Assembly: GCA_031296325.1 (NCBI GenBank)
Contig: JARLFY010000090.1
Coordinates: forward strand, 1-32,079
From: Acidobacteriaceae bacterium
Lineage (GTDB): Bacteria; Acidobacteriota; Terriglobia; Terriglobales; Acidobacteriaceae
DNA: 32,079 nucleotides
Direction of reading: 5' to 3'
Shown here piece after piece: positions 7,223 through 21,269 of this stretch. The notes below the pieces were generated by a model. The model ran no database searches. It was not told the DNA's origin and saw nothing but the letters and a program-made list of their open reading frames with translations. The translations under genes and the position numbers were made by a program. Position 1 is the stretch's first letter; every line of letters starts with the position of its first letter.

Positions 7223-8788
7223 GTGAGCGCGCGCGGCCTCATGGTTCTTGGCACCAGCTCGCACGTCGGCAAGTCTCTGTTGACGGCGGCGCTCTGCCGC
7301 ATCTTCGCGCAGCAGGGCTATCGCGTCGCGCCCTTCAAGGCGCAGAACATGTCACTCAACTCCGCCGTCACGCCAGAGGGTTTGGAGATCGGTCGCGCGC
7401 AGGCTCTACAGGCCGAGGCCGCCGGAATCCTGCCCTCGGTACACATGAATCCTATCTTGCTGAAACCCTGTAGCGACAGCTCCTCGCAGGTCGTCGTGCG
7501 CGGCAAGATCTGGGACAAGCTCACGGCCAGCGACTATCATCTGCGTCGCGTCGATGAACTAATCTCAGTCGTGCGCGAGAGCTACCAGACCCTCGCCGAA
7601 CAGAATGACGTAATTATTCTAGAGGGTGCAGGCTCACCCGCCGAGATCAATCTAAAGAAAAACGACATCGTCAACATGCGCATGGCCGAGATGGCCGACG
7701 CGGCCTGCATTCTGGTCGGAGACATCGATCGCGGCGGAGTCTTCGCCTCGCTGCTCGGCACCATCGAACTGCTTGACGCGCAGGAACAGCAACGAATTTT
7801 CGGCGTTCTCATCAACAAGTTTCGCGGCGACGTATCGCTTCTTATGCCCGGCGTACGCATGATCGAAGAGCACATCGACAAGCCCTGCATCGGTGTTGTG
7901 CCGTACATCTCGCATCTCGCGCTGGAGGAAGAAGACAGCGTAGGCCTTCCCGTTCTCGGCTCAAACGATGGCGCAACGTGGACGCCATCGACCGACGCAG
8001 CGCGACCATTGCGCATCGCCGTCATCGCTCTGCCATCGTTCTCCAACTTCACCGACTTCGACGCTCTGCGCGCCGAGCCCAGCGTCTCGCTGCATCTCTG
8101 TCGCACCGCCGAAGAGCTTGCCCACGCCGACATTCTCATCGTCCCCGGCAGCAAGCAGACGGTCGACGATCTGCACTGGATGCGCGCCAACGGTCTGGAT
8201 CGCGCACTGCTTCATCACGCGCGCAACGGTCTCGTCGTCGGCATCTGCGGAGGCATGCAGATCCTCGGCGAAGAGATCGTCGATCCGCTCGGCATGGAGA
8301 GTGCGGGCAGCATCAAAGGCCTTGGCCTGCTGGCGATTCATACCACCATGCAGCCGCAGAAGACGACGCGCATCAGCTCCGGCCGCCTCGCTATGACGTC
8401 GCTCTTCGGCCAACCCATCGCATCGCAACGCATCCACGGCTATGAGATTCACATCGGTGAGACGCGCTATCTCGACGGCGCAAAGCCCTTCGCGGAACTC
8501 GAACGCGAGTCCAGCCAGAGCCTTCGCGACGGATGCATTGCCACGAATGGCCGCGTCTTTGGCAGCTATCTGCATGGCCTCTTTGACGACGACAGCTTTC
8601 GCCACGCCTTTATCTCAGCCGCGCGCGCCTTTTACGCACTCGCTCCAACGACCCAGCTCAACAACTGGCGGCAACAGCGCGAAGAGTCGCTCGATCGCCT
8701 CGCCGACACCGTGCGCGACTCGCTCGATATGACGCAAATCTTCTCCTGGGTAGGACTCACCTACACTCCGCACAACAACGATAAATAG
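7223..8788 (+). CDS. cbiP: Cobyric acid synthase
   Basis: This enzyme amidates side chains b, d, e and g of adenosyl-cobyrinate diamide with glutamine and ATP, giving adenosyl-cobyric acid. The 521-residue length is typical. The N-terminal domain has the P-loop GTSSHVGKS (10-18), PFKAQNMSLNS and EIGRAQALQAEAAG, all family hallmarks, and ILEGAGSPAEINL. The C-terminal glutamine amidotransferase domain has the nucleophile Cys in GICGGMQILGEE, IHGYEIHIG, and GSYLHGLFDD with the conserved His. The start is GTG, chosen because AAGGAGA lies 6 bases upstream. It follows the adenosyltransferase gene by 61 bp and is the third gene of the riboswitch unit. The name cobQ is equivalent. Confidence 0.97.
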   Translation: MSARGLMVLGTSSHVGKSLLTAALCRIFAQQGYRVAPFKAQNMSLNSAVTPEGLEIGRAQALQAEAAGILPSVHMNPILLKPCSDSSSQVVVRGKIWDKLTASDYHLRRVDELISVVRESYQTLAEQNDVIILEGAGSPAEINLKKNDIVNMRMAEMADAACILVGDIDRGGVFASLLGTIELLDAQEQQRIFGVLINKFRGDVSLLMPGVRMIEEHIDKPCIGVVPYISHLALEEEDSVGLPVLGSNDGATWTPSTDAARPLRIAVIALPSFSNFTDFDALRAEPSVSLHLCRTAEELAHADILIVPGSKQTVDDLHWMRANGLDRALLHHARNGLVVGICGGMQILGEEIVDPLGMESAGSIKGLGLLAIHTTMQPQKTTRISSGRLAMTSLFGQPIASQRIHGYEIHIGETRYLDGAKPFAELERESSQSLRDGCIATNGRVFGSYLHGLFDDDSFRHAFISAARAFYALAPTTQLNNWRQQREESLDRLADTVRDSLDMTQIFSWVGLTYTPHNNDK

Positions 8789-8824
8789 AGCGCTATCACT
8801 ATTTCTGTAGAGTAAAAACTATTC

Positions 8825-8870
8825 TCATTCTGATCGACGCGAAGAATCTCCGCATATTCTTCGCGTCGCG
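8825..8870. repeat. Dispersed hairpin element, copy 1 (convergent spacer)
   Basis: The core TCATTCTGA ... CGAAGAATCTCCGCATATT matches the three other copies in this window. Here it forms a perfect 13-bp stem, CGACGCGAAGAAT (8835-8847) with ATTCTTCGCGTCG (8856-8868), around an 8-base loop. It lies between the ends of cbiP (plus) and the lyase gene (minus), and could serve as a bidirectional terminator although U-tracts are weak. Confidence 0.75.
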
Positions 8871-8895
8871 ACGCTCAACCCATTGGGAAAATTCT

Positions 8896-11688
8896 CTACT
8901 CTCCGCCAGAGCCTTCTGCGGAGGGCTTTCCTGCGTCCCACCCCGCGGAGCCTGCCGTGGGCAGCAGGTCGGCGCAGAACTCCAGCACGGCAATCGCCGT
9001 AAGCCCGGACTGCGCGGCGCTGTTGGTGCTGGTTCCGTCGTCGCTCGAAACCAGCGCATACGGAGGATCGACGTGTGCGGCGCGCACTCCGCCGACGCGA
9101 TAGAGTCCATCGATGGCGCTGCGAGCCAGTGCTCCATCTCTGGTCACGGCATACGCGTAGGCCTGTAGCTTGCCCAGACTGATCCCAGCGCCCGAGTCGG
9201 CGCAGAACTCCGCCCAGATCTTCTTCCAGGCCATGTCGTCGATGCTCATATTCATCTCGAACATCAACTCCGCGCCGCCCATGATGGTGGCTAGATTATA
9301 GGTTCCCTGCGTGTTGTCGCGCGCGGTCAACTTGCCGGTCGCAGGGTCAAAGCCCATCAGCATCTCCTTGCCCGTGCGGAAGCCATGCGGCATCGCCTCC
9401 ATGGACTTCATTCCGGCAAGAATCTTGTCGCGCCATTGCGTGTCGCCGGTGCGTTCCCACTCGGTCATCCAGTTGCCTGCAATAGCCAGCCAGTCCGGCC
9501 CGGAACGCACACGCGCGGGAAACTGTTTATCGCTCCCACGTGGCGGATCGGCCTCGCGCATCGGGTCATATGCCATGATCGACCTCTCTGCCTGTGTCGC
9601 CTCGTGCATCACGTCGCCTGTTCGCTCGTCGCTCGAAAGGTAGTAGTAGAAGCGGCGGAACGCAGCCTGTCCAATGCGCGCCTCTTTCGCTCCATCGCCC
9701 CAGTGCGAGACGCCGTGACGTGTGCCGAGTCCGGCCATCGGGCCGAAGTGATAGCTGTCAACCTCGCCGGTGTGACACGTCATCGCCTCGGCCATGCGGA
9801 ACAGATCTGCGCGTCCCGAACGCAGAAACGAGGTCCAGAGCCATGTATCCGTACCCAGTTCGGAGTTGTCCCACGCCATGCCGCCCAGGTCGTATCGCCA
9901 GACGTGGCGAGCCTCGTCGAACGAGTGCATCACGTCGCCGAAGTTCCAGAAGCCGTACCAACTGCGCTGATCCACCTGTCCCAGATACAAGTTCAGCGTG
10001 GCGTCCAGACTGCGCTCGACCGAGGCGCGGAAGGGCGTCGATGTGTTGCGCACGCTCCAAAATCCGAAGGCGCGCACGTTGTGATAGTACTGCGGCGAGG
10101 CGACCAGCAGCGGCAACGCCGTCCCAGCCTTCGCCATCGCAGCCGTCGCAGGCTTGCTCGGAACGCGCGAGCTGGGCCACAGCGTCAACTCGCTGGTGCG
10201 CGCAATGCCGAACGGCGTACTGTTGCCCGCCTGCACATCCTCGTAAGCCTCCTGCAATCCATGCGCTCGCGTGTCGTAGTGGCGCAGATCCATCGCCTCG
10301 GCCTCGGGAGACCAGAGCCACGCGGTCAACTGTGCCGCAGGGCTCGCGGCGTTCTGCACCGCAAGCTCCGCCGGGTAAGACTGCCAGAAGTTCTTCACGC
10401 TCACGCCTAGCCCGCCGCTCACGTCTCCGACAAAGACATGCCCGGTCGAGCGTCTTCCCGTCGCCGCATTCAGCCATGAACTCTGCGCATTCGTGCGCTT
10501 CTGGATGGTGAATCCGTTGGGGCTGAGTTGCACCAGTTTGAACTCGTCCCACACCGCCCAGTGGTCGACCATGTCGCGCCCCTGCTTGCTCATCTGCGCG
10601 CGGTTGGCGACGCGTTGCCCGTTCAACTGCGTCGGGTAAGCGTCGTTGCCGTTGGAGTCGTTGACGATGCGCGAGCCTCCCCCGCGCCCGATCAGCGGCT
10701 GGATCGGTTCGCTCCACAGCCCCTTGCCCTCGCCCGAAAGTCGCACATGGCGGTTATGAATCTCCTCGCGCATTGGCACGTTGAAACTCACGCCCAGCCC
10801 GCGAATGAAGTCCTTCTCCTGATCGCCGTCGAAGAAGATCGTATGCACCATGCGCACCGGCGTCTGCCCCGCGTAGAAGTAGAGCCGTACATGGAAGGGC
10901 AGCCACTCGCGGCCCGACTTCGCGCCCTTGTGAACGCCCTCGAACTTGACCACCGCGCGCACCGGCCCCGACTGCTCCAGCGTAACTTTCTTAATCAGGC
11001 TGACAAATCTTTCGCGCGCAGGAGCGTCGTCCGCCGCGCTCTCCGGGCCGCTTTGCAAGATGCAGACCAACTGCCCCGCGCCAACCACCGCGCGCCCCTC
11101 GACCGTCATCGAGTCCACCAGATTCGCGCCACCCGCCAACGGGATCGAGCATTGCATCGCGCCCGTGTCAATGCAAATTACCTTCGCATCGCGAGTAACC
11201 ACCAGCGCGCCCAAACCCGCAGCGTTGCCTCCGGCCGCCGAACCATTTGCAGAACTCGCCGTCAGCAGTACCTGACTGTTCAGCCCAGCCGGAACCACCG
11301 TAGCAAAGCCGCTCCACTTCAGCGATCCATCGGGCCAGCTTGCCAGCGGCCAGCTCTGCACTGGCAACTCCCTGCCCTGCGCGCTCAGGCTGAACTTCGC
11401 TCCGCGCGCAATCGCTCCCTTCGGCCAGGGAACGCCCCAGCTAACCCCGGTCGGCATCTGTGGAAGATCCTCGCCCAGCCAGGAGAGAGTTACGTTCGAC
11501 GTTCCTCCGCGACCAATCTGCGCCCCAGCCTCCTCCATCGCGGCACCGGATCCATGGCCCATCGCCTGCCCGCCATCCCCCTGCGCCGAAGCGGCGAAGA
11601 GACTGCCTTCAACCAGCGAACCAGCAGTCAGCGCCGCTCCAGCCAGCGCAGCATTCCGCAAAAAAACCCGACGTGATGATTCGCTCAA
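8896..11688 (-). CDS. Tat-exported YetA/PcRGLX-like (PL26-type) exo-rhamnogalacturonan lyase family protein
   Basis: A 930-residue exported protein. The N-terminus SSRRVFLRNAALAGAALTAG carries a twin-arginine motif and hydrophobic core, so it is probably exported folded. The rest matches, in order, the RIFT-barrel N-domain (FGxxxPKGAI-like stretch VSWGVPWPKGAI near residue 85), a beta-sandwich middle (about 370-480), and an alpha/alpha-toroid C-domain (HSFDEARHVWRYDLGGMAWDNSE near 600, HVDPPYALVSSDDGT near 890) of the PcRGLX/YetA family. Characterised fungal members release unsaturated galacturonosyl-rhamnose from rhamnogalacturonan I. The start is TTG with GGGAG 8 bases upstream. No sugar transporter or other pectin gene is adjacent. 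The family call is from recognition without a search, and the substrate is inferred. Confidence 0.78.
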   Translation of the reverse strand: MSESSRRVFLRNAALAGAALTAGSLVEGSLFAASAQGDGGQAMGHGSGAAMEEAGAQIGRGGTSNVTLSWLGEDLPQMPTGVSWGVPWPKGAIARGAKFSLSAQGRELPVQSWPLASWPDGSLKWSGFATVVPAGLNSQVLLTASSANGSAAGGNAAGLGALVVTRDAKVICIDTGAMQCSIPLAGGANLVDSMTVEGRAVVGAGQLVCILQSGPESAADDAPARERFVSLIKKVTLEQSGPVRAVVKFEGVHKGAKSGREWLPFHVRLYFYAGQTPVRMVHTIFFDGDQEKDFIRGLGVSFNVPMREEIHNRHVRLSGEGKGLWSEPIQPLIGRGGGSRIVNDSNGNDAYPTQLNGQRVANRAQMSKQGRDMVDHWAVWDEFKLVQLSPNGFTIQKRTNAQSSWLNAATGRRSTGHVFVGDVSGGLGVSVKNFWQSYPAELAVQNAASPAAQLTAWLWSPEAEAMDLRHYDTRAHGLQEAYEDVQAGNSTPFGIARTSELTLWPSSRVPSKPATAAMAKAGTALPLLVASPQYYHNVRAFGFWSVRNTSTPFRASVERSLDATLNLYLGQVDQRSWYGFWNFGDVMHSFDEARHVWRYDLGGMAWDNSELGTDTWLWTSFLRSGRADLFRMAEAMTCHTGEVDSYHFGPMAGLGTRHGVSHWGDGAKEARIGQAAFRRFYYYLSSDERTGDVMHEATQAERSIMAYDPMREADPPRGSDKQFPARVRSGPDWLAIAGNWMTEWERTGDTQWRDKILAGMKSMEAMPHGFRTGKEMLMGFDPATGKLTARDNTQGTYNLATIMGGAELMFEMNMSIDDMAWKKIWAEFCADSGAGISLGKLQAYAYAVTRDGALARSAIDGLYRVGGVRAAHVDPPYALVSSDDGTSTNSAAQSGLTAIAVLEFCADLLPTAGSAGWDAGKPSAEGSGGE

Positions 11689-11882
11689 AAGACGATCTCC
11701 CTACTGAATTCAGAGCCGCATACATCCTGCAATCCCGGCGTTGACCAACCATTATCCGCTAACCGAGGCAGGCTTGTGAAACAGCCCTGAGTCAGTCCGC
11801 AAAACTCCAGAGTCCAATCTATTTATAGCCATTCCGTCTGCGCTATACTCAGCCACAGTCGTTTTCATCCAAGGAGTCATTC

Positions 11883-12278
11883 ATGCTTAGAGGTTTTCGC
11901 GACTTCATCCTGCGCGGCAACGTCGTCGATCTCGCAGTCGCCGTCATCATTGGCGCAGCCTTCGGCAAGATCATCACCGCCTTTACCACCAACATCATCA
12001 GCCCGCTGATCGGTGCCATCGTCGGCAAGCCGGACTTCTCCTACCTCTTCTTCACCCTGAACGGCGGCAAGATCGGCTACGGCAGCTTTCTCACCGCCGT
12101 CATCGACTTCCTGATTCAGGCTGCGGTCGTCTACTTCCTGCTGGTTGTGCCGATCAATTATCTTATGGCGAAGGTCAACAAGCCCGCCGAGACGACCACG
12201 AAGACCTGCGACGAGTGCCTCTCGGAGATCCCGCTCACAGCCAAACGCTGCAAGTTCTGCGCCCAGCCCGTCGCCTAA
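11883..12278 (+). CDS. mscL: Large-conductance mechanosensitive channel
   Basis: MscL is an inner-membrane pentamer that opens under membrane tension to release solutes on osmotic downshock. The 131-residue protein starts with FRDFILRGNVVDLAVAVIIGAAFGKI, the conserved N-helix and pore-lining TM1, has a periplasmic loop (about 45-70) and TM2 (FLIQAAVVYFLLVVPINYLM, about 80-99). The C-terminal tail ends in a CxxC-x11-CxxC zinc-ribbon-like cluster (CDEC and CKFC), known in some soil-bacterial MscL homologues but absent from E. coli MscL. AAGGAG precedes the ATG by 6 bases, and a -10-like TATACT lies about 30 bp upstream. It is divergent from the lyase gene. Confidence 0.97.
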   Translation: MLRGFRDFILRGNVVDLAVAVIIGAAFGKIITAFTTNIISPLIGAIVGKPDFSYLFFTLNGGKIGYGSFLTAVIDFLIQAAVVYFLLVVPINYLMAKVNKPAETTTKTCDECLSEIPLTAKRCKFCAQPVA

Positions 12279-12299
12279 CCCTTCGCCCAGCCCGTCGCC
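12260..12299 (+). repeat. 16-bp direct repeat across the mscL stop codon
   Basis: CGCCCAGCCCGTCGCC occurs at 12260-12275, coding for the MscL C-terminus, and again at 12284-12299, separated by TAACCCTT. The second copy abuts the composite palindromic repeat, so it may mark the duplication produced when that repeat arrived. Confidence 0.7.
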
Positions 12300-12586
12300 G
12301 GGTGCCCCATCCATCGCAGCACTTGGCGATGGGTGGGAGCGATACCACTCACCCCACAAGTCGTTGCCGTTGCTTCTGCCGTGCCGTTTAATTGGTTTGT
12401 CATCCCCGAAGGGGATCTTCTTTTGCCGTTGCGGTTGTCGTTGTTTTTGCCGTGGCAGCTAAAGGGCCAAAGGCCTGTTCCATACCAGCCCAGACCGAAG
12501 GTCTGGGTAAAACGTATCGCGCTGAGATTGAGGGCTGAAGGCCCAACCTATAACGTCTGCCCCACAACGTCAGGCGCAAAGACTCC
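12279..12586. other. Convergent spacer packed with short palindromes
   Basis: A 308-bp spacer between mscL (plus) and cimA (minus). It holds the composite repeat (12297-12420) and then several small hairpins with a GAA or AAA loop: ATCCCC-GAA-GGGGAT (12402-12416), GGCC-AAA-GGCC (12465-12475), CCCAGACC-GAA-GGTCTGGG (12489-12507), and GGGCT-GAA-GGCCC (12532-12544). Between them runs a GTTGCC/TTGCCGTTG-rich tract (about 12361-12455). No ORF is supported. Confidence 0.7.
12297..12420 (+). repeat. Composite intergenic repeat, copy A
   Basis: Order of parts: GCCGGGTGCCCC, the palindrome CCATCCATCGC (12307-12317) / GCGATGGGTGG (12326-12336), then GATAC, CACAAGTCG, a tract rich in TTGCCGTTG, and GGTTTGTCATCCCC with its own hairpin. 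The same parts occur in the same order on the minus strand at 23197-23338. Confidence 0.7.
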
Positions 12587-14221
12587 CTACGCCGGATTCT
12601 TCAACAGCCAATAGTCGAATCCGTCCACAATCGCCATCAGCGCGGCCTGATTCAGATCGCTGCTAACTCCTGCGGTCGTCCACGGCTGATGCCCGTCGGC
12701 GTGGAAGCTCACCGTCACGCGAACATGCGCCGCCGTATCGTGCGCCGTCACGTCGATCGCCGTCACGCTGAAGGTATCCAGACGCATCCTTTGGATCGCC
12801 GGATACCAGTGTTCCAACTCCTGACGCATCGCACGGGTCAGCGCATCGACCGGCCCGGATCCCTCCGCCTGCGAGGCCGTCACCCGTTCATCGCCCAACT
12901 GTAGCGACATCGAGGCCTGCACAAACCGGTTTCCCCGCTCGTCCGACTCGTCCACAACCTTCCAACTCTTCACGCTGAAGCTGTTGCGCAGCGTCCCCAG
13001 AATCTTCATGCAGGCCAGCCGGAACGAGACCTCGCTCGCCGTGTATCCTCCACCGTCGATCATCGCCTGATTCGCGTCGATAAAGCTCTGCGCCTCGGTC
13101 GAATTCAGCGCGACTCCCAGCGATGCCGAGAGCAGCATCACGTTGGCCCGCCCCGACTGCCCGTTGACCCCGATCCGCGAATAGGCCCCCACCCGCGCCG
13201 GATCGCACCACAGATACGCACCCGGATCCTTGCCCTCGCTGCTTCCGTGCATCCCCGCCCAGGTTCCAAAGGCTCCCGGGCCAACGATCGGCGCGCCGTG
13301 CGGAGCCTCCAGCGAGAAGGCGGCATAGGCCTCCCGCGCCAGTCCGGTCAGCCCGGCCAGTGCCTCCGCCGCAACGAACTCCGCCTCGTCGCGCAGTTGC
13401 ATGCTGCCCACCACCGTCGTCAGATTCACATTGCCGCAACGCTCGCCCGTACCCAGCACTGTACCCTGAATCTGCACCGCTCCGGCAAAGATCGCCGCCC
13501 TCGAATTGGCCACTCCCAGCCCGCGATCCGTGTGCCCGTGAAATCCAAAACTCGCCGTCGGATAGGCCTGACGCAGCTCGCCGAAGACCGCAGCGACCTC
13601 CTCCGGACTTGCCCCTCCGGTCGTGTCGCATAGAACGATACGCCCCACCCGCTGCTCCACACACTGCGCCGCCATCTGATGCAGATAATCGCGTGTGCGC
13701 CGGGCAAAGTCGGCATCGCACCGCACCCCGCTCTCGCGCCGCGCACAGGCCGCATCCATCGCATGCTCAAAGTCAACAAAGACCTCCAGCCCCTCATCCT
13801 GTAGGCAGGCGATGGTCTCGTAGGCCATGCGCAGATTCTCCTCCGGGGTCGTCGCCAGCGACTTAGCCACATCCAGCAGACGCGACTTGACCACCACCAC
13901 CGCAACCGGAACCCGCGCCTTGTGCCGCACCATAAACTTTACGTCGGGCCAGTCCTGCACCCTCGCGCCGCGCCCGCGCGTCCGCCCAAACAGAGCCAGC
14001 CGCGTCGATCCAGTCTCGACCGAAGCCAACGCCTTGGTCAGATCGGAGACAAACAGATTCGCACCGGCAAATCCAATCTCCGCGTAATGCACCCCGAACT
14101 CGCCCATCCGCTGGAGCAGGCGAACCGCGTTCGGAACCGAGATGTCCAGGTTTGGCTGCTGCAACCCGTCGCGCAGACTGGTATCAAACAGCTCAACCGT
14201 TATCGATTTATTCTCCGTCAT
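12587..14221 (-). CDS. cimA: (R)-citramalate synthase
   Basis: Citramalate synthase condenses pyruvate with acetyl-CoA and feeds the threonine-independent route to isoleucine. The protein, 544 residues from the chosen start, has the HMGL-like TIM barrel with FDTSLRDGLQQPN at residues 12-24 (metal and substrate site), DFEHAMDA, CDTTGGASPEE and FGFHGHTDRGLGVANS with the HxH metal ligands, then GTVLGTGERCGNVNL. The C-terminal third (about 400-540) is a LeuA-type dimerisation/regulatory domain, usually the isoleucine feedback site. Closely related homocitrate and isopropylmalate synthases are alternatives, but this domain pattern fits the CimA group. An upstream in-frame TTG at 14275 exists. ATG 14221 with AGGGA just upstream is preferred. 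Confidence 0.9.
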   Translation of the reverse strand: MTENKSITVELFDTSLRDGLQQPNLDISVPNAVRLLQRMGEFGVHYAEIGFAGANLFVSDLTKALASVETGSTRLALFGRTRGRGARVQDWPDVKFMVRHKARVPVAVVVVKSRLLDVAKSLATTPEENLRMAYETIACLQDEGLEVFVDFEHAMDAACARRESGVRCDADFARRTRDYLHQMAAQCVEQRVGRIVLCDTTGGASPEEVAAVFGELRQAYPTASFGFHGHTDRGLGVANSRAAIFAGAVQIQGTVLGTGERCGNVNLTTVVGSMQLRDEAEFVAAEALAGLTGLAREAYAAFSLEAPHGAPIVGPGAFGTWAGMHGSSEGKDPGAYLWCDPARVGAYSRIGVNGQSGRANVMLLSASLGVALNSTEAQSFIDANQAMIDGGGYTASEVSFRLACMKILGTLRNSFSVKSWKVVDESDERGNRFVQASMSLQLGDERVTASQAEGSGPVDALTRAMRQELEHWYPAIQRMRLDTFSVTAIDVTAHDTAAHVRVTVSFHADGHQPWTTAGVSSDLNQAALMAIVDGFDYWLLKNPA

Positions 14222-14556
14222 TGATCCCTGTTCCCGGCCTCGTACGACTCTTCCTGAACGATCCCCAGCAAGCAAACCGTCAGAGTTTTATGATACCTCT
14301 ACGCGCCGCCCCAGCGCCGCCCGCCTTCCGCAGAAACGAAAGCGCATTTCAGCAGCATCGTAAGGGCACACTAAAAGCAGAGGCGTGCGCTTCAGCAGCA
14401 TCGGAAGGGAACGCGTTTACGCGTGCCGAAAAGAATCCCTATCTTCTTTTTTTACTCTCGGGATTGCGTAGCAATCCCGAGAGTAAAGACGCACCCCTAC
14501 TGCAAAGTTCCTCGCGCAGATCGTTCCCCATCCCATAAACTAGAGACTTGCCCCCG
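14222..14556. other. Divergent promoter region of cimA and mqnA with repeats
   Basis: A 335-bp region from which cimA and mqnA diverge. It contains a direct repeat (TTCAGCAGCATCG-N-AAGGG-N-AC at 14348-14369 and 14391-14412, 20 of 22 identical, 43 bp apart), the small palindrome ACGCGT-TT-ACGCGT (14411-14424), and a long perfect palindrome at 14451-14487. I cannot assign -35/-10 boxes with confidence. Confidence 0.6.
14451..14487. repeat. Perfect 17-bp inverted repeat with 3-base loop
   Basis: TTTACTCTCGGGATTGC (14451-14467) and its exact complement (14471-14487) flank GTA. There is a T-run before it and no T-run after it, so it is not a plus-strand terminator. Lying between two divergent promoters it could be an operator, or another member of the palindromic repeats. 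Confidence 0.7.
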
Positions 14557-15579
14557 ATGATACCAACTCGCCTGCGTGTCGCCGCCATCAACTTTCTGAA
14601 CCCTGCACCCCTAATGTGGGACTTCAACCATCCGCCGCTATCTTCGCAGCTTGCCGAGCGTTACCAGATCCACTCCATTCAGCCCGCGCAGTGCGCCATC
14701 GAGTTGCTGGAGGGCCGCGCCGATCTGGGCCTGATCCCCATCGCCGCGCTCACGCCAGAACTCACCATCGTCCCCGGCTGCACCATCGCCTCGCTCGACC
14801 GAGTTCGTTCCATCCAACTCATCGTAAAACTAAACCGCAACAGCAGCCAAAATATCATCCCCCTAAATAAAGATTGTCATTCTGACACTGAACGAAGTGC
14901 AGGGGAAGAATCCCCGCATTTCGTTCGCAGCGCGACAGAGTCCGATCAAATCCTCGCCAGCGTCCGCAGCATTGCCGCCGACACAGCCTCGCGCAGTTCG
15001 CTGGCCTACACCCAGATTCTCTTCAACCGATTCCTCGCCACCGACCCCGCCTTTATCCCCGCGCCCGCCAATCCCATCGCCATGCTGCACCAGGCCGATG
15101 CGGCTCTGCTCATCGGCGACCCAGCCCTACTCGCCCTCGAATCCCGCGCCGAGATCGAGGCATCCGTCGGCCCCTGCCTCTGGCTCGACCTCGCCCACGA
15201 GTGGATCGCACGCACGGGGCTGCCCTGGGTCGCCGCCGTCTGGGCCGTCCGCAGCGAGGCACTCACCAGCACCTCTCCCGCACAACTCCTCGCCGACCTC
15301 GAACAATCCCGCGACCACGGTCTGGCCAACATCGACCAACTGGTATCCGAATGGACTCCGCGTATCGCTATTCCTTCCAACATCATCAGTAACTACTTAA
15401 ACCACAACATTCACTATCGCCTTACCCCATCCTGCATTGAGGCGATCCAACTCTTCCGCCGCTACGCCGCCGAAGCCGCAATTCTCCCCCCGCTACCCAA
15501 CCTCCGCTTCCTGCAAAGCTCTAAACAAATTAGCCCCCACCGCGACTTCCCATCGCCGACAAGCGTCATACCATCATGA
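14557..15579 (+). CDS. mqnA: Chorismate dehydratase of the futalosine menaquinone pathway, with inserted repeat
   Basis: MqnA converts chorismate to 3-[(1-carboxyvinyl)oxy]benzoate, the first step of futalosine-dependent menaquinone synthesis. Family features: RVAAINFLNPAPLMWDF at the N-terminus, CAIELLEGRADLGLIPIAAL, IVPGCTIASLDRVRSIQL, then IAADTASRSSLAYTQILF, and DLAHEWIARTGLPWVAAVW. It is a periplasmic-binding-protein-like fold. At 340 residues it is longer than the roughly 280 usual for the family. The excess sits between RSIQLIVK and ASVRSIAADTASR (about residues 95-130), where a dispersed hairpin element is translated in frame. Start is ambiguous: TTG 14548 or ATG 14557, neither with a strong ribosome binding site. 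The stop overlaps the start of the next gene (ATGA). Confidence 0.88.
   Translation: MIPTRLRVAAINFLNPAPLMWDFNHPPLSSQLAERYQIHSIQPAQCAIELLEGRADLGLIPIAALTPELTIVPGCTIASLDRVRSIQLIVKLNRNSSQNIIPLNKDCHSDTERSAGEESPHFVRSATESDQILASVRSIAADTASRSSLAYTQILFNRFLATDPAFIPAPANPIAMLHQADAALLIGDPALLALESRAEIEASVGPCLWLDLAHEWIARTGLPWVAAVWAVRSEALTSTSPAQLLADLEQSRDHGLANIDQLVSEWTPRIAIPSNIISNYLNHNIHYRLTPSCIEAIQLFRRYAAEAAILPPLPNLRFLQSSKQISPHRDFPSPTSVIPS
14873..14932 (+). repeat. mqnA: Dispersed hairpin element, copy 2, inside mqnA
   Basis: ATTGTCATTCTGA ... GAAGAATCCCCGCATTTCG ... GCAGC matches the other copies. GAACGAAGTGC pairs with GCATTTCGTTC (one G-U) and encloses GGGG-AAGAAT-CCCC, giving a long hairpin. The reading frame stays open through it and encodes about residues 106-126 of MqnA (HSDTERSAGEESPHF region). 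Confidence 0.8.
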
Positions 15580-16334
15580 TGCTAACCGCAGCACGAGCGA
15601 TTGTTTCTGCGCGGACGAGTGCCTTGGGCCTGGCCGCAACTCTAGCCGCAGCTCTGCCTGCCGTCGTGCATCACGAGGCCATCTGGCTGGTTCACCTGCT
15701 GCTCTCCTTCGGTCTGCTGGGAGTTCTGCTGGTCTCTATTGTCGATGCGTCCTTCGTGCCTCTGCCCATTCCCGGCATCACCGACCTGCTGGTCGTCATT
15801 CTTGCCGCGAGACACACAAACATCTTCCTGCTGGTCGGCGTAGCGACGATCGGCTCCTTCCTTGGCGGAGCCTTCAGCTATCAGGTTGGCCAAACCGGAG
15901 GCCTCGCCTTTCTCGAACGACACGTTCCGCCGCGCATCTTCCAGACCGTCTGCAACTGGATGCAGACGCACGCGATTCTCTCGGTCGCTCTGCCCGCGAT
16001 TCTGCCTCCGCCCATGCCGCTCTCGCCCTTTGTTCTGGCTGCGGGAGCGCTCAACATGTCGCGGCGGAAGTTTCTGACCACCTTCACCCTCAGCCGCTTG
16101 CTACGCCACTCCATAGTCGCCGCTCTGGGCGTCCACTACGGCCCACACATTCTGCATCTATGGAACCTCTTCACCCGCAAGTGGAATACAGAGATTCTCA
16201 TCGCCATCTGGAGTACGATCTCCATCAGCGTGGCCTTCGCCTTCTACCGGCTCTACAAGACCAACCGCGCCCTCAACGAGCAAAGCCAAGCTAGCCGAGA
16301 CCCACGTGCCGCCACTCCGACCGCGCAGGTCTAA
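15576..16334 (+). CDS. VTT-domain (DedA/YqaA-like) integral membrane protein
   Basis: A 252-residue polytopic membrane protein with hydrophobic segments at about 14-32, 38-62, 67-80, 83-105, 135-160 and 205-225. The part from SFVPLPIPGITDLLVVIL to LPPPMPLSPFVLAAGAL fits the VTT (SNARE-associated/DedA) domain, with the re-entrant proline-rich loop typical of the family. Some DedA proteins act as lipid (undecaprenyl phosphate or phosphatidylethanolamine) flippases and affect envelope integrity. The role here is unknown. The ATG overlaps the mqnA stop codon by 4 bases, so it is translated with mqnA, although no functional link to menaquinone synthesis is established. The tail is polar and Ala/Ser-rich. 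Confidence 0.82.
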   Translation: MMLTAARAIVSARTSALGLAATLAAALPAVVHHEAIWLVHLLLSFGLLGVLLVSIVDASFVPLPIPGITDLLVVILAARHTNIFLLVGVATIGSFLGGAFSYQVGQTGGLAFLERHVPPRIFQTVCNWMQTHAILSVALPAILPPPMPLSPFVLAAGALNMSRRKFLTTFTLSRLLRHSIVAALGVHYGPHILHLWNLFTRKWNTEILIAIWSTISISVAFAFYRLYKTNRALNEQSQASRDPRAATPTAQV

Positions 16335-16357
16335 CGACTAGCTCGACTTCCCCCCGT

Positions 16358-17380
16358 TTAGATCTCCCACCGCAAAAGCGTCGCCGCCACGGTGAAACCC
16401 GCGCCTGCGCTGGCCAGCAGCACCAGATCGCCCTTCTTCACGCGACCCTCTTCCATAGCGGTCTTCATCGCCATGGGGATCGTTGCAGCGGTTGTATTGC
16501 CGAAGCGATCGATGTTGATAATCACCCGATCGAGAGGCATTCCCAGCCGCTCGGCGGTCGACAGAATGATCCGCTTGTTGGCCTGATGCGGGATGAAGCA
16601 GCCCACGTCCTTGCCGGTCAGGCCGTTGTTGGCCAACACGGACTCGGTCGCCTCTGCCATCTTGCGCACGGCAAACTTGTAGACCGTCGGCCCATCCTGG
16701 TGGACGTAGTGCATCTTCTGCGCCACGGTCTCCGCCGAGGGAGGATTCAGGCTTCCACCGCCGGGCATGTACAGCGACTTCGCGCCCGTCCCGTCGATCT
16801 CGTGCCAGTAATCCACCAGCCCGACCTCGCCCTCTTCGCATGGCTCCAGCAGAACCGCTCCCGCGCCATCGCCGAAGATCACGCAGGTCGTGCGGTCGGT
16901 GTAGTCGATAATCGAGCTCATCACATCGGCTCCCACCACCAGAACCTTCTTGTGCGCTCCGCTCTGCACCAACTTCGCGCCCACCTGTAGCGCGTAGGGA
17001 AAGCCCGAGCAGGCAGCCGAGAGGTCGAAACCCCATGCGCCTTTCGCGCCAATCTTCTCCTGAATCAGGCAGGCCGTCGACGGGAACATCATGTCGGGAG
17101 TAACCGTAGCCACGATGACGACCTCGACTTCGGAGGCTGGAATTCCCCGTGCCGCCAGACACTGCCGCGCCGCCTCTGCTCCCAGATCGCTGGTTGCCAC
17201 GCCCGCGCCCTTGTCCACAACGTGTCGCGTGTGGATTCCGGTACGCTCCATGATCCACTGATCATTGGTCGCAACCATCTTCTCCAGATCCGCATTCGTC
17301 AGCAGCCGCGGCGGAACGTACGTCCCTACCGAACTGATCTTTACCCGCACACTCTGCTGTGCCTTCAACGTCAGACCCAA
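16358..17380 (-). CDS. fabH: 3-oxoacyl-ACP synthase III
   Basis: FabH starts fatty-acid synthesis by condensing an acyl-CoA primer with malonyl-ACP. The thiolase-fold protein has [22 protein letters not shown] at the N-terminus, [12 protein letters not shown], the nucleophile Cys124 in [10 protein letters not shown], and the remaining catalytic residues His in PHQANKRII and Asn in [13 protein letters not shown]. It ends with the usual [13 protein letters not shown]-type motif. The frame can be extended to TTG 17422, but GAGGTGA lies 4-5 bases before the TTG at 17380, giving 340 residues, close to the family norm. I prefer that start. The gene is monocistronic here, convergent with the VTT gene and divergent from the DUF59 gene. 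Primer preference cannot be read from sequence. Confidence 0.95.
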
Positions 17381-17563
17381 ACCATCACCTCGCTGCTTCT
17401 TTCTGTTCAAAGTTCTTCTCAACCTAGGCTACACCGGCGCGCGACATTCCTGCCGCGCCAGATAGCCCCGAATCATTCTCTCTGACCTGCGCCCGAAGAA
17501 CAAGTGCGCAGCTTGAGCCATTCTATAAGCGACGTTGCAAGATATGATGAAAGTCAGGACACC

Positions 17564-18019
17564 ATGCCTCTATCGCCCGCAAAACTCGCTCCAACCACGC
17601 CCCTCAGCGAAGCCGCCATTCGCTCCGCCCTGCGCGATTGCTACGATCCCGAACTGCCCTGCAACATCGTCGACCTCGGTCTGGTCTACGGCATCGCTCT
17701 CACACTCGACCCGGACGCCCCCGGCTCGGGAATCCCCGGAGTTCCCGCGCGCTATCGCGTCGCCGTCCAGATCACCCTGACCACGCCCGGCTGTCCCGCG
17801 CACACGCAAATCGCCGCGCAGATCGAGAACCGCCTCGCCGCCTTCGAGAGCGTCAGCCAGACCAGCGTTGAGCTAGTCTGGCAGCCCGTCTGGTCGCCCG
17901 AGCGCATCACGCCAGAGGGTCGTCTGCGCCTCGGAATCAACGCCAGCAATCCGCTCTTCGCCAAGACCCGCGCAAAAAACCTCCACCCCAGAAAGAGCGA
18001 TCTCGTCCATATTCAATAA
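17564..18019 (+). CDS. DUF59/MIP18-family iron-sulfur cluster assembly protein (SufT/PaaD-like)
   Basis: A 151-residue protein with one DUF59 domain (about residues 15-110). Landmarks are ALRDCYDPELPCNIVDLGLVYGI (residues 22-44), a beta-strand VAVQITLTTPGCPAH with conserved Cys77, and LVWQPVWSPERI. SufT-type members help load [Fe-S] clusters onto target proteins, and PaaD-type members serve the phenylacetyl-CoA epoxidase. No paa or suf gene is nearby, so a general maturation role is more likely. The ATG at 17564 is preceded by AGGA at 4-base spacing and is preferred over an upstream in-frame start at 17504. It lacks the CxxC tail of long PaaD proteins. Confidence 0.85.
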   Translation: MPLSPAKLAPTTPLSEAAIRSALRDCYDPELPCNIVDLGLVYGIALTLDPDAPGSGIPGVPARYRVAVQITLTTPGCPAHTQIAAQIENRLAAFESVSQTSVELVWQPVWSPERITPEGRLRLGINASNPLFAKTRAKNLHPRKSDLVHIQ

Positions 18020-18079
18020 CCTAAACCTTTCCAATAAAATGATCCCGCAATAAATCTGAAAGAGGCTCTAAGCCGCATC

Positions 18080-18925
18080 ATGAGTTCCAAACAATCCCAA
18101 CCCGCCCTAAGTCTTGTTCCTGCACCCACTCGCGCGCGCGACCTGCTGAAGTTGACCAGCTTCCCCATCCATCCCTTCGACCAGATGCACGGCGTAGACA
18201 CCAGCGGCCTTGTCCCGGCCAAACACCTTGTCACCGGCCACGCCAACGACGAGCATGTTACGGCCTACTACGGCGTTGCGCCCAGCATTCTGCGCTCCTT
18301 GATTGAGCGCTGGCTCGAACTCTCCCCGCCCCACGCACTCGACCAGTACACCTTCATAGACATCGGCTGCGGCAAGGGACGCGGCCTTCTATTGGCCAGT
18401 GAGTCCCCCTTCCGCCGCGTCGTCGGCGTGGAGTTGAACCCCGCCATGGCCGCCATTGCGCAGCAGAATGTGGAGCATTGGACGCACGACCACGCCGAGG
18501 ATCTCACCGCCCCGCGCCTGGCTCCGATCGAGGTCTTGGAGATGGACGCGCTCGACTTTGACCTGCCCGACACGCCGACCCTGCTCTTCCTCTTCCACCC
18601 CTTTGAGGCGCCGGTTCTCAAGCAGCTTCTGCGCCGCATCGAGACGCACTTTGCCAAACGCCCCGGCGCGCTCGACCTGCTCTACGTCAACGCCGAGTGC
18701 GCCAACGTCCTCGACCGCAACCCCGGCTTCGAGCAGCTCTTTCTGGACAACGTCCCCATGTCGCCCGAGGATCACGCCGCCGACATCGAGGCCATCGCCC
18801 GCCAAAAGGACTATGGCTCCACCGGCGACGAGGAGTGCGCCATCTACCGCTACTCCGGCCGCGCCAAAGGCCCCATCTTCCCCCCCTCCCGCATAGCTCA
18901 TCCCACTCCTGAAGCGTCATTCTGA
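18080..18925 (+). CDS. Class I SAM-dependent methyltransferase, substrate unknown
   Basis: A 281-residue protein with a clear Rossmann methyltransferase core. Motif I FIDIGCGKGRG is at residues 92-102, followed by RVVGVELNPAM (acidic ribose-binding Glu), then EVLEMDALDFDLP and TLLFLFHPFEAPVLKQLL. The N-terminal 70 residues (HPFDQMHGVDTSGLVP) match a group of uncharacterised bacterial methyltransferases. It follows the DUF59 gene by 60 bp on the same strand. The last codons, Ser-Phe-stop, are read from the left end of a dispersed hairpin element (TCATTCTGA), so the original C-terminus may have been different. The following gene converges. Confidence 0.85.
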   Translation: MSSKQSQPALSLVPAPTRARDLLKLTSFPIHPFDQMHGVDTSGLVPAKHLVTGHANDEHVTAYYGVAPSILRSLIERWLELSPPHALDQYTFIDIGCGKGRGLLLASESPFRRVVGVELNPAMAAIAQQNVEHWTHDHAEDLTAPRLAPIEVLEMDALDFDLPDTPTLLFLFHPFEAPVLKQLLRRIETHFAKRPGALDLLYVNAECANVLDRNPGFEQLFLDNVPMSPEDHAADIEAIARQKDYGSTGDEECAIYRYSGRAKGPIFPPSRIAHPTPEASF

Positions 18926-18957
18926 GCGGAACTCAGAATCTCTGTCGTTCTTTCTGT
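18916..18957 (+). repeat. Dispersed hairpin element, copy 3, supplying a stop codon
   Basis: CGTCATTCTGAGC begins the element as in the other copies, and ATTCTGAG-CGGAA-CTCAGAAT forms a perfect 8-bp hairpin. Its TGA at 18923-18925 is the stop codon of the upstream methyltransferase gene. It is joined directly to the CCATCGC palindrome that follows. Confidence 0.65.
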
Positions 18958-19002
18958 CGGGTGCCCCATCCATCGCCGCCCTTGACGATGGGTGGGAGCG
19001 AA
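18958..19002 (+). repeat. CCATCGC/GCGATGGGTGG palindrome, single-module copy
   Basis: CGGGTGCCCCATCCATCGC ... CGATGGGTGGGAGCGA, nearly identical to the first module of the composite repeat at 12297-12340, including the GGTGCCCC lead and the GGGAGCGA tail. The stem arms are 18966-18976 and 18986-18995. It lies between the methyltransferase (plus) and tsaE (minus). Confidence 0.75.
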
Positions 19003-19012
19003 ATGCCCCCGC

Positions 19013-19450
19013 CTACTCCTTCAACCGCAGAATCAACCCGCGTTCATCGCCCTCGCCGTGCTCCATGTAGATCTCGCCACCGGCCATCTTCACCACGCTC
19101 TCGAATCGCTCGCCCCACTCCACCAGCACCAGCGAGTTCTCGTACCCAGCCATCTCGTCCAGCCCCAGCACGGCGATCTGCTCCTCGGTCTCCAGCCGAT
19201 ACAGGTCGAGATGAAAGAGTCGCACCGCAGTTCCAACGTACTCATGCACGATGGTGAAGGTCGGACTGGTCACCTCGTCCTCGGTCGCCGCGCCCAGCGC
19301 CTCGGCGATCCCCTTCACCAGCGTCGTCTTCCCTGCGCCCACCTCGCCGCGCAGCACCACCAGCAGCGGAGGACGCAGCATCCCCGCGATCTTCCCGCCC
19401 AACTCCAGCGTCTCCTCCACCGACCGCGTCTTGAACCGCTTCTCCCTCAT
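19013..19450 (-). CDS. tsaE: tRNA N6-adenosine threonylcarbamoyltransferase ATPase subunit
   Basis: TsaE is the ATPase that works with TsaB, TsaC and TsaD to make the universal t6A37 modification in ANN-decoding tRNAs. From ATG 19450 the protein has 145 residues, a normal length. It shows the P-loop GEVGAGKTT (Lys41), SPTFTIVHEY (switch region), LFHLDLYRL and LVLVEWGERF with the conserved Trp. A longer frame starts at 19534, but GAGAGGA lies 6 bases before ATG 19450 and the extension would overlap the upstream gene. It lies 28 bp after nnrDE, an arrangement (NAD(P)HX dehydratase next to tsaE) that is common in bacteria. Confidence 0.95.
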   Translation of the reverse strand: MREKRFKTRSVEETLELGGKIAGMLRPPLLVVLRGEVGAGKTTLVKGIAEALGAATEDEVTSPTFTIVHEYVGTAVRLFHLDLYRLETEEQIAVLGLDEMAGYENSLVLVEWGERFESVVKMAGGEIYMEHGEGDERGLILRLKE

Positions 19451-19478
19451 CAATCTTCCTCTCGTCCTCAATAAATAA

Positions 19479-21269
19479 TCAGCGCCATCGGAATAAATCG
19501 GGGTTACCCTTTGCCGCAACCGGATGCAGCCCACAGATCCACGTTAGTCCATCGGCATCCTTTGTGCGATAGCGAAACGCATCCGACAGATGCGCCAGCG
19601 TGTCGCTGGCCAGAACCGTATGCTCGTCCATCGACCGCGCAGCGAAGTCTCCGGCGAGTCCATGCAGGTAGACGGCGGACTCCACCGCGCGAGCCACCTC
19701 CTGCGCCTCTCCGCCACGAGCGTACTGCGCCAGCATTGCGGCGATGATTCCGGTCAGGACATCTCCGCTGCCACCCTTGGCCATCGCCGGATTGCCGCTG
19801 GTATTGACCGCGACGCTTCCGTCGGGATGGGCGACGAGCGTGCGCCAGCCCTTCAGCACCAGCGTCAGCCCGTGTGCAACGGCGAACTTTCGCGCCAGCC
19901 CGACGCGGTCCGCCTCGACCTCGGCGACCGTCAGCCCGAGCAACCGAGCCATCTCGCCGGGATGCGGCGTCAGCACCAGCGTTCGCGGCTTCCCCGTCGG
20001 ATCCTTGCGCGCAGCGGCGAGGCGCAGCAGTTCGGCCCGCCCCGCAAAGGCGTTCAGAGCATCGGCATCGACGACCATCGGCAACGAGGCGCGCTTGACG
20101 AAGCTACGCACAAACTCCTGCGGTGCCGTCTCCCGCCCCAACCCCGGGCCAATCGCCGCCACCGAGATTCCACGCAACAGCCGCTCCAGAGCGTTTCCAC
20201 TGTTGCTGTAGTACAGAAACGTATTGTCACTCTGAGCAAAGCGAAGAGTCCCTGCATTTTGCTCGTGCTGCAACACGTCAGAGGATTGTTTGAAGTACTC
20301 TAAGTCCCCATCCTCTGTCAGATCCAGAATTTCCTGTCCCAACGGCAGAACCATCAACTCCGGCGCAAATCCCGCGACCGTCGCAAGAATTTCGGATGGC
20401 ACGGCGGCCGTAACCAGTCCCGCTCCCGCGCGCAGCGCCGCCATCGCGGCCATCGACGGCGCGCCCGCCATGCCGTAGCTTCCGCCGACCACCAGAACGT
20501 GGCCAAATCGTCCCTTGTTCGCATCCACCGCCCGCGGTGCCTCGGCAATCGTCTTCGCCGATCCAGCCCAGTGCAGCCCACTCGCGGAGCAAACCGCCTC
20601 CTCAGGCGAACCAATCTGCGCAACAACCACTGGCCCGCCACGCGATCCGGCGAGCCGACCGAAGACATGCGCCGACTTCGCGGCGGTAAACGCAACCACC
20701 GCGTCGGCGCGAAAGGCTCCGTCGGCGTTCATTGCAACCGAGTCGGCGTCCCAGCCGCTCGGCAGATCGACCGCGACCACCGGCGCAGTCAGCTTTGCCA
20801 CAGCCTCGCGCAGAGCCAACGCAACCCCACGCAGCGGAGGCTGAAAGCCCGTCCCCACGATCGCGTCGACGACAAGCTCCGCCGTCTTCAGCGACCGGGT
20901 AGCAAGGGCCAGCCACTCTTCAAGCTGCGCAGCCCCATCCAACTCCCGCACCACGACCTCCGGGGCGTCAAAGCGCAGACGACCGATCGCCGAAACCGCT
21001 TCTCCCCGCAGATCGGCCTCGCGCCCCAGCAGCTGAACCTCGACGACAACGCCCGCCGCCGCAAGCACTCGTGCCGCAACCAGTCCGTCTCCGCCGTTAT
21101 TGCCCTTGCCGCACAGCGCAACGACTCGCCGCGCCGCCGGATACCGCCGCAGACAGAAGCGCGCCACCGCCGTCCCAGCGTTCTCCATCAGCGTCTCCAG
21201 CGGAACGCCGAACTCCTCCGCCGTACGCCGATCCACCGCGCCCATCTCCTGCGAACTCAAGATCCTCAT
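19479..21269 (-). CDS. nnrD: Bifunctional NAD(P)HX epimerase / dehydratase, with inserted repeat
   Basis: Repairs hydrated NADH and NADPH. The N-terminal epimerase (YjeF_N, about 1-215) has MRILSSQEMGAVDRR, ENAG and the GKGNNGGDGLVAARVL loop. The C-terminal ADP/ATP-dependent dehydratase (about 235-570) has FGHVLVVGGSYGMAGAPSMAA, AIGPGLG, VDADALNAF, LTPHPGEMARLLG and NPAMAKGGSGDVLTG. At 596 residues it is longer than the roughly 500 usual. Part of the excess lies at about residues 315-362, before AIGPGLG, where a dispersed hairpin element is translated in antisense (TLRFAQSDNT). Another part is a 25-residue tail after LSDAFRYRT that I cannot match to the family. The start ATG is preceded by AAGGGA. 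It forms a unit with tsaE. Confidence 0.93.
   Translation of the reverse strand: MRILSSQEMGAVDRRTAEEFGVPLETLMENAGTAVARFCLRRYPAARRVVALCGKGNNGGDGLVAARVLAAAGVVVEVQLLGREADLRGEAVSAIGRLRFDAPEVVVRELDGAAQLEEWLALATRSLKTAELVVDAIVGTGFQPPLRGVALALREAVAKLTAPVVAVDLPSGWDADSVAMNADGAFRADAVVAFTAAKSAHVFGRLAGSRGGPVVVAQIGSPEEAVCSASGLHWAGSAKTIAEAPRAVDANKGRFGHVLVVGGSYGMAGAPSMAAMAALRAGAGLVTAAVPSEILATVAGFAPELMVLPLGQEILDLTEDGDLEYFKQSSDVLQHEQNAGTLRFAQSDNTFLYYSNSGNALERLLRGISVAAIGPGLGRETAPQEFVRSFVKRASLPMVVDADALNAFAGRAELLRLAAARKDPTGKPRTLVLTPHPGEMARLLGLTVAEVEADRVGLARKFAVAHGLTLVLKGWRTLVAHPDGSVAVNTSGNPAMAKGGSGDVLTGIIAAMLAQYARGGEAQEVARAVESAVYLHGLAGDFAARSMDEHTVLASDTLAHLSDAFRYRTKDADGLTWICGLHPVAAKGNPDLFRWR
20224..20272 (+). repeat. 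nnrD: Dispersed hairpin element, copy 4, inside nnrD
   Basis: ATTGTCACTCTGAGC ... GCGAAGAGTCCCTGCATTTTGCTCG ... TGC aligns with the mqnA copy over its whole length, apart from a short gap. GAGCAAA and TTTGCTC form a stem. It runs antisense to nnrD, and the frame stays open through it, coding for about residues 333-349. Confidence 0.8.

What the first reader, a model, noticed from the sequence alone, without database searches (positions are those of the whole stretch)
8825..20272. A dispersed hairpin element present at four sites, including inside two enzymes
Copies at 8825-8870, 14873-14932, 18916-18957 and 20224-20272 share TCAYTCTGA near the left end. Three of them also share GAAGARTCYCYGCATWTT, with different but complementary bases in the stem arms, as expected for an element kept for its fold. 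None carries a transposase gene. Two are intergenic between convergent genes and two are inside coding sequence without breaking it. This looks like a mobile or copied REP-type sequence tolerated in proteins, comparable to Rickettsia palindromic elements.
Basis: partly seen in the sequence, partly recalled or inferred. Interest (0 to 1): 0.7.

Follow-up and report, generated by a model that had tools for sequence, protein, structure and literature searches.

The report
Hairpin repeat riding in IS630 MITEs
A small DNA hairpin that is scattered more than a hundred times through this bacterium, sometimes inside enzymes, sits in many copies at the centre of a tiny jumping element whose ends match an IS630-family transposon of related species, and the same hairpin turns up in many bacterial phyla.

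Summary
The repeat is real. Three of the four sites (8824, 14876, 20226) are one family with at least 150 copies in the genome (148 of 150 scored candidates, a capped list that lacks two of the window's three). Site 18915 is a sister form: a CGTC-tagged REP with an 8-bp stem. The core is YGTC + ATTCT-GA-GC-GNA-GC-GA-AGAAT + C; this 25-mer (one free base) lies in 119 named stretches that I place in 18 phyla. IS630-family elements of same-genus relatives have such ends, so I read the rods as IS630-type MITEs with a REP hairpin core. Neither Y1_Tnp (RAYT) nor IS630 genes were found in this 88.8%-complete genome. Fourteen of 132 sampled copies lie inside genes (LigA, MnmG, MurD, MqnA, NnrD and others), ten in the frame CHSERSEESPHF or its longer form. 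Aligned relatives lack the MqnA and NnrD inserts. REP-like and tolerated in proteins: supported. RAYT: not supported.

The parts
8786..8898 (+). Full-length rod (113 nt): IS630-type MITE with a YGTC-type hairpin core; both terminal TAGs serve as stop codons of the two convergent genes
   Evidence: ends match the rod ends at 22 and 19 of 27 (1% null cut-off 16); DNA fold z -3.62; stop codons read
8824..8848 (+). Hairpin core of element 1 (tag CTC, stem ATTCT/AGAAT)
   Evidence: R1 match 8821-8866, 48.3 bits
14873..14930 (+). REP unit without detectable MITE ends, in frame inside the MqnA-family gene (14548-15579)
   Evidence: R1 85.4 bits; end scores 10 and 14, below the cut-off; insert absent in 23 of 23 aligned same-genus homologs
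14548..15579 (+). Host gene: menaquinone biosynthesis protein family (MqnA-like), frame open through the insert
   Evidence: PF02621 9.2e-37 in two stretches
18915..18940 (+). Canonical CGTC REP: CGTC tag, 8-bp stem ATTCTGAG/CTCAGAAT, 5-nt loop CGGAA; supplies the stop codon of the gene that ends at 18925
   Evidence: perfect-stem scan, one of 3 such in 99 own sources
20187..20302 (+). Full-length rod (116 nt), antisense inside the NAD(P)H-hydrate epimerase/dehydratase gene
   Evidence: end scores 20 and 16 of 27; insert absent in 23 aligned ORFs from 22 same-genus genomes; DNA fold z only -0.30
20223..20268 (+). Hairpin core region of the element in the NAD(P)H-hydrate gene
   Evidence: R1 53.4 bits
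19479..21269 (-). Host gene: bifunctional NAD(P)H-hydrate epimerase/dehydratase, open through the insert
   Evidence: PF01256 and PF03853; TIGR00196 and TIGR00197 over cut-off

Best explanation
The element is a non-autonomous IS630-type MITE whose core is a YGTC-tagged REP hairpin. Shown: a 113-131 nt rod with two inverted ends starting TAGAGCATTTTC, like the ends of ~1.03-kb IS630-family elements of same-genus genomes; inside it a hairpin YGTC-ATTCT-GA-GC-GNA-GC-GA-AGAAT-C or a longer-stemmed form; at least 150 core copies; mostly between genes, about a tenth inside genes. Inferred: an IS630 transposase acting in trans, from an element now lost from or missing in this assembly, moved the rods to TA dinucleotides. 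The commonest rod length, 116, less one TA is 114 nt or 38 codons, and four of the six core frames are usually free of stops, so insertions in linkers of enzymes can be tolerated; the Ser/Glu-rich frame is the one usually seen. Copies without ends, such as the one in mqnA, are either worn-down rods or REPs that moved in another way.
For: End test against random places: 42 of 131 left, 77 right, 84 at least one, 35 both, about 1.3 expected for each end. Search by ends alone in the own stretches: 39 rods, all with the hairpin (29 R1 matches, 10 read by eye), 0 in shuffled sequence. PF13358 in 18 of 62 genus genomes; 4 of 30 fetched DDE_3 loci have paired ends at 20-21 of 24 about 1.03 kb apart, 0 of 180 control loci reach 18; L353 transposase passes NCBIfam IS630 (138 bits, cut-off 100). 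Rods with the same ends in G080 and G010. Rods begin with TA in 21 of 35 and end with TA in 20 of 35. Taking out 114 nt from the NAD(P)H-hydrate gene leaves an open frame that scores better against 22 of 23 relatives. Relatives lack the two inserts.
Against: No DDE_3 gene in this genome (88.8% complete). 47 of 131 copies show neither end, the mqnA copy among them. No empty site was seen at the DNA level, so the TA duplication is inferred from the ends. The own stretches were chosen around hairpin copies, so rods without a hairpin could be missed. The outer stem covaries little (73% paired vs 69% shuffled, 7 of 2000 as high). Mean gain on emptying the NAD(P)H-hydrate gene is only 7 bits. In same-genus relatives other than G080 the R1 copies that I read showed no such rod (30 loci, by eye).
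Confidence: 0.78

Rival explanations
1. The YGTC REP has its own mover, a single-strand (HUH/Y1, RAYT-like) or unknown enzyme, and the rods are only preferred landing places: the REP entered the loop of an older palindromic MITE, which later spread with or without it.
For: The bare REP is present in most same-genus relatives (29 of 36 by R1) and the 25-mer in about 18 phyla with no shared flanks. Y1_Tnp occurs in 49 of 60 genus genomes. Rods with other interiors exist in G080 and G010. 47 of 131 copies have no ends.
Against: No Y1_Tnp in this genome; 1 of 30 Y1_Tnp loci has copies nearby. All 39 rods found by ends in the own stretches hold the hairpin at the same place, as expected if the composite spread as a unit.
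Confidence: 0.3
2. The repeat is kept as an RNA or transcription signal (terminator or mRNA stabiliser) rather than as mobile DNA.
For: Copies prefer convergent over divergent gaps (35 of 51 vs 10 of 48, p 2.3e-6) and lie closer to gene 3' ends than to 5' ends (median 64.5 vs 128 nt).
Against: Between tandem genes 34 run with and 30 against transcription (counted), although the core is not symmetric; no Rfam match in 8000-21500; copies sit in frame inside genes. Avoiding promoters explains the placement equally well.
Confidence: 0.1
3. The in-gene copies mark broken genes or miscalled frames.
For: No expression data; fragmented assembly; genes called by my own script; two of 13 host proteins had no Pfam match and one only a weak one.
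Against: Frames stay open through the inserts and align on both sides with homologs for MqnA and NAD(P)H-hydrate; LigA, MnmG and MurD keep domain matches on both sides of the insert.
Confidence: 0.05

Closest known systems
CGTC-tagged REPs (Di Nocera et al. 2013, PMC3733652)
   Same: Tag CGTC or TGTC, stem that begins with AT, short tail starting with C, head-to-head dimers, in-gene copies, no dedicated transposase known. Site 3 fits the description throughout.
   Different: Main form has a 5-bp stem, a GA/GA mismatch step and a 2-bp GC stem closed by GNA, not an 8-9 bp stem with a 4-5 nt loop; here it sits inside IS630-type ends; Acidobacteria are not among the five phyla named for CGTC repeats.
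MITEs of IS630/Tc1-mariner-type insertion sequences
   Same: No transposase gene, inverted ends shared with an IS630 element, TA borders, ~116 nt.
   Different: Parent seen only in relatives; core is a REP hairpin also known on its own.
Rickettsia palindromic elements
   Same: Palindromic element in frame inside unrelated core enzymes, with a favoured reading frame.
   Different: Other lineage; no RPE sequence was fetched for comparison; RPE-4 and RPE-6 are CGTC REPs according to PMC3733652.
GTAG REPs with RAYT transposases
   Same: High-copy tagged hairpin.
   Different: Other tag; no RAYT found in the genome and no clear link to Y1_Tnp genes in relatives.
QMITE2 of Coxiella burnetii (review PMC10969869, passages seen)
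   Same: Truncated copies that lost their ends resemble REPs, as do the end-less copies here.
   Different: Not compared by sequence.

Membership tests
CGTC-tagged REP superfamily | Unpaired 5' tag CGTC, TGTC or CCTC | tested here: met
   134 exact cores from named contigs: base before GTC is T in 112, C in 16; site 3 has CGTC. The GTC itself was part of my search pattern.
CGTC-tagged REP superfamily | Stem starting with complementary A-T pairs | tested here: met
   A-U 41 of 46 and U-A 45 of 46 at the first two pairs
CGTC-tagged REP superfamily | Stem of 8-9 bp with a loop of 4-5 nt | tested here: not met
   met by site 3 and 2 other places in 99 own sources; the main form has 5 bp + GA/GA + 2 bp + 3-nt loop. 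The paper names exceptions in loop length.
CGTC-tagged REP superfamily | Head-to-head dimers | tested here: inconclusive
   19 of 134 cores have an inverted partner with at most 4 mismatches within 200 nt; stem variants would be missed
CGTC-tagged REP superfamily | Sequence match to the four published families | not testable with these tools
   consensus sequences are in a figure, which is not held
IS630-type MITE | Terminal inverted repeats shared with an IS630-family element | tested here: met
   L351, L352, L353 ends 17-23 of 27 against the left rod end; paired-end control; NF033545
IS630-type MITE | TA target duplication | tested here: inconclusive
   TA first in 21 of 35 and last in 20 of 35 rods; no empty site at DNA level
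IS630-type MITE | Parent transposase in the same genome | tested here: not met
   PF13358 0 matches in G000; genome 88.8% complete
GTAG REP with RAYT | GTAG (or GTGG) tag and a RAYT gene flanked by the repeat | tested here: not met
   tag is YGTC; PF01797 not in G000; 1 of 30 Y1_Tnp loci in relatives has copies nearby
Rickettsia palindromic element | Palindromic element in frame inside unrelated genes | tested here: met
   14 of 132 copies in 13 genes, frames open
Rickettsia palindromic element | Sequence relatedness to an RPE family | not tested
   no RPE sequence was fetched

The most novel reading that the evidence does not exclude
YGTC REPs have no dedicated transposase because they travel as the folded core of ordinary DDE-transposon MITEs, taken up again and again by unrelated elements in many phyla. 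This genome names one carrier (IS630); in five other lineages (Desulfatirhabdium, Chloroflexales, Binataceae, Anaerolineales, Nitrospirae) the same REP or REP dimer lies between inverted repeats that do not resemble one another.
Probability: 0.33. Interest if true: 0.78.

Novelty: new variant of a known kind. Interest (0 to 1): 0.58.

Why it matters
The 2013 survey of CGTC REPs left open what moves them and suggested a broad range of transposases (PMC3733652, passages). Here a CGTC-type REP is tied, by shared ends and by copy structure, to an IS630 element, so the question can be tested with one transposase and one rod. The same 25-mer hairpin in about 18 phyla is striking: six longer strings of it were found in 0 held papers (the 10-mer TCATTCTGAG is in 148 papers, of which 20 were listed and none concerned repeats). 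It also adds an Acidobacteriaceae case of repeats tolerated inside core enzymes with one preferred reading frame; CHSERSEESP in a protein is a warning sign for annotators.

Tried and rejected
RAYT as mover: PF01797 in the own genome and in the genus (49 of 60 genomes; 30 fetched loci checked): no support in this genome. Plasmid or phage source: one 54-nt query gave 3 plasmid records and no phage record; no lead. Replication-strand bias: strand counts in eight genomes (14/13 in G064, 21/8 in G041, 39/19 in G003, 20/8 in G085, 43/49 in G086, 5/4 in G084, 1/1 in G048, 0 in G082) are mixed; inconclusive, not used. RNA family: no match in window 8000-21500. RNAalifold on 22 rods gave only the 5-bp hairpin. 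DNA folding energy does not single out the 25-mer (z -0.22) nor the rod at 20187-20302 (z -0.30), while 8786-8898 (-3.62), 14873-14935 (-4.93) and a rod of L157 (-5.90) fold better than shuffles. That d(GCGNAGC) forms an unusually stable DNA mini-hairpin is recalled; one search shows only a listing of papers that hold GCGAAGC with 'extraordinarily stable'.

Papers and what was seen: PMC3733652 abstract, passages and section 15; PMC6006769 passages and section 27; PMC2817692 passages; PMC10969869 passages; all others search listings only.

Limits of counts: the 132 copies come from 98 own stretches chosen around earlier hits plus the window (414,663 bases, 410,012 distinct, of about 2.6 million; 132 distinct places), so they are not a random sample. 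Genes were called by my own script. One copy of 132 was left out of the end test for lack of flank. In one search, 13 of 134 cores were left out for lack of flank, two of the eight top pairs (L299, L324) are other repeat copies, and lower cut-offs show only a mild excess (25 vs 17.4 at score 9). Phylum labels are my reading of record titles; the scan was capped.

Full report
What was claimed and what is there. The motif GAAGARTCYCYGCATWTT occurs three times in the window against 0.01 expected. The window is one contig of a 2.6-Mb, 88.8%-complete, 94-contig genome. It shares a genus with G012, whose first contig has the same length, 2,076,233 bases, as JAAVVA010000001.1, 'Acidobacteriaceae bacterium dw_441', so I take it as an Acidobacteriaceae. 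The 160-nt stretch around site 2 gave 40 BLAST rows in the own genome (40 scored of 202 candidates).

The core. Copies start sharply at TTGTCATTC. Forms differ inside: GTCATTCTGAGCGNAGCGAAGAATC, longer stems such as GTCATTCTGACACTGCACGAAGTGCAGGGGAAGAATC, and GTCATTCCGCAGCGAAGCGGAGGAATC. An alignment of 46 cores with a structure that I named keeps the outer 5-bp stem in 96.1% of cells; the whole structure has 14 cells changed on both sides, which none of 500 shuffles reaches. Against it: the inner helix is paired in only 71.5% of cells, because the types differ there, and sliding the partners by +2 also gave 14 such cells and a higher score (0.090 vs 0.075). In the whole genome the exact 14-mer TGAGCGNAGCGAAG occurs 108 times, with 0 for the reversed pattern.

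Distribution. R1 matches 29 of 36 same-genus relatives and, weakly, 1 of 24 genomes of the same order or class. The 25-mer GTCATTCTGAGCGNAGCGAAGAATC is far wider: a scan of named genome contigs stopped at its limit with 119 stretches. By my reading of the titles they fall in 18 phylum-level groups plus 3 unclassified records. Over 134 cores the base before is T in 112 and C in 16, the base after T in 94 and C in 38, and conservation ends there, so the unit is about 27 nt; all four bases occur at the free position. In the same loci (839,677 bases, chosen for holding the 25-mer), hairpins of the shape YGTC-5-11-5-C with perfect stems number 180 against 2 in a first-order random control; 142 have the stem I searched for, 38 have others (ATCCT 15, ACCCT 6, ATTCC 5 and so on), and 16 of these 38 keep GAGCGNAGCGA. 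In 149 genomes of the phylum the 14-mer is patchy: 47 have at least one match and a few have dozens.

The rod. Aligning wider flanks showed inverted ends. Against a null from random places in the same loci, 42 of 131 copies have the left end, 77 the right end, 84 at least one, 35 both and 47 neither at the 1% level; the 35 rods are 113-131 nt, most often 116. A search by the ends alone in the own stretches gave 39 rods; 29 hold an R1 match and I read a GTCATTCC hairpin in the other 10; shuffled sequence gave 0. The stretches had been chosen around hairpin copies, so this does not exclude rods without one. In 27 rods of 113-117 nt the outer stem is paired in 73% of cells against 69% shuffled (7 of 2000 as high): the ends are kept mostly as sequence. 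One rod of the relative G080 has the same hairpin; another in G080 and one in G010 have the same ends and other interiors; strict rods were found in 2 of 62 genus genomes, and in none of the own genome's copies at that strictness.

The parent. The TA borders suggested an IS630-type transposase, so I searched PF13358: 18 of 62 genus genomes have it, this one does not. Of 30 fetched DDE_3 loci, four (L351, L352, L353, L377) have paired TAGAGC...GCTCTA ends about 1.03 kb apart at 20-21 of 24 and a fifth (L371) at 16; of 180 other loci none reaches 18 and three reach 16. Ends of L351, L352 and L353 agree with the left rod end at 17-23 of 27; those of L371 and L377 at 15-18. The transposase of L353 passes the NCBIfam IS630 model (138 bits, cut-off 100) and those of L351 and L353 have PF13358. 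I therefore read the rods as IS630-type MITEs whose transposase is not in this assembly.

Placement. With my gene calls, 132 copies at 132 distinct places divide into 64 tandem, 35 convergent, 10 divergent, 14 inside genes, 3 across a gene end and 6 at a locus edge. Convergent gaps hold copies more often than divergent ones (35 of 51 vs 10 of 48, p=2.3e-6), and copies are rarer inside genes than the coding share of 82.6% would give. Between tandem genes 34 run with and 30 against transcription, which gives no sign of an RNA role. Inside genes 12 are sense and 2 antisense; 10 of 14 use the frame that reads CHSERSEESPHF or its longer form CHSDTxxSxGEESPH (W for C in one), p=3.3e-4 given the open frames. 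Hosts by Pfam include NAD-dependent DNA ligase, MnmG, MurD, a laccase-like protein, two PMT-type glycosyltransferases, an EamA protein, DUF4147 and, weakly, an RNA methyltransferase; two had no match.

Two enzymes in the window. The MqnA insert is absent in 23 of 23 aligned same-genus homologs, several of which have short unrelated linkers at that point. The NAD(P)H-hydrate insert is absent in 23 aligned ORFs from 22 genomes; one (L078) has a different insert there. Taking out 114 nt of that element leaves an open 558-residue frame that scores better against 22 of 23 of these ORFs, mean 638.0 to 645.5 bits, gaps 54.1 to 27.3. The MqnA copy shows no MITE ends.

Beyond this genome. In 121 cores of other loci with enough flank, left and right flanks were compared for inverted repeats: score 14 or more in 8 against 0.84 expected from swapped flanks. 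Six of the eight, from five lineages, are outer inverted repeats around the REP or REP dimer; two are other repeat copies. This is the basis of the bold reading that unrelated MITEs carry these REPs; which transposases they belong to was not examined. Di Nocera et al. noted REP dimers inside longer palindromes in two species and suggested that CGTC elements may be moved by a broad range of transposases (PMC3733652, passages); the review PMC10969869 (passages) notes that MITE copies which lost their ends look like REPs.

Verdict. Known kinds in a new combination: a CGTC-type REP, an IS630-type MITE and RPE-like tolerance in proteins. Confidence in the MITE reading is 0.78, in the general carrier model 0.33. 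The rivals overlap with it in part, so the odds are not meant to add to one.

Noticed in passing
window 12300-12338 (+), 18959-18997 (+), 23295-23335 (-): A second palindromic repeat, GGGTGCCCCATCCATCGC...GCGATGGGTGGGA, about 40 nt, often beside the REPs; 20 copies in the 99 own sources.
   Followed up: partly
window 23206-23230 (+): A remnant of the GCCATTCCGCAGCGAAGCGGAGGAAT form of the hairpin, with a TGACAAACAAA tail.
   Followed up: no
L041 444-510, L029 1877-1950 (reverse strand): Short tandem partial copies of 23-24 nt such as GTCATTCCGTAGCTCTTTTGTTT, in a row before a complete hairpin, as if the start of the element had been copied repeatedly.
   Followed up: no
G085:C1 1962256-1962821 (genome of L330, Lachnospiraceae bacterium AC2029): Thirteen copies of the loop motif on one strand at an exact 46-nt spacing, a tandem array of the hairpin unit.
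   Followed up: no
L032 475-2586 (-): One membrane glycosyltransferase gene carries two hairpin copies read in two different frames.
   Followed up: no
L280 4853-6450 and L313 2265-2340 (Ignavibacteria): Head-to-head hairpin dimers flanked by GGTTCTA-type inverted sequence, below the cut-off used but alike at several loci of one genome.
   Followed up: no
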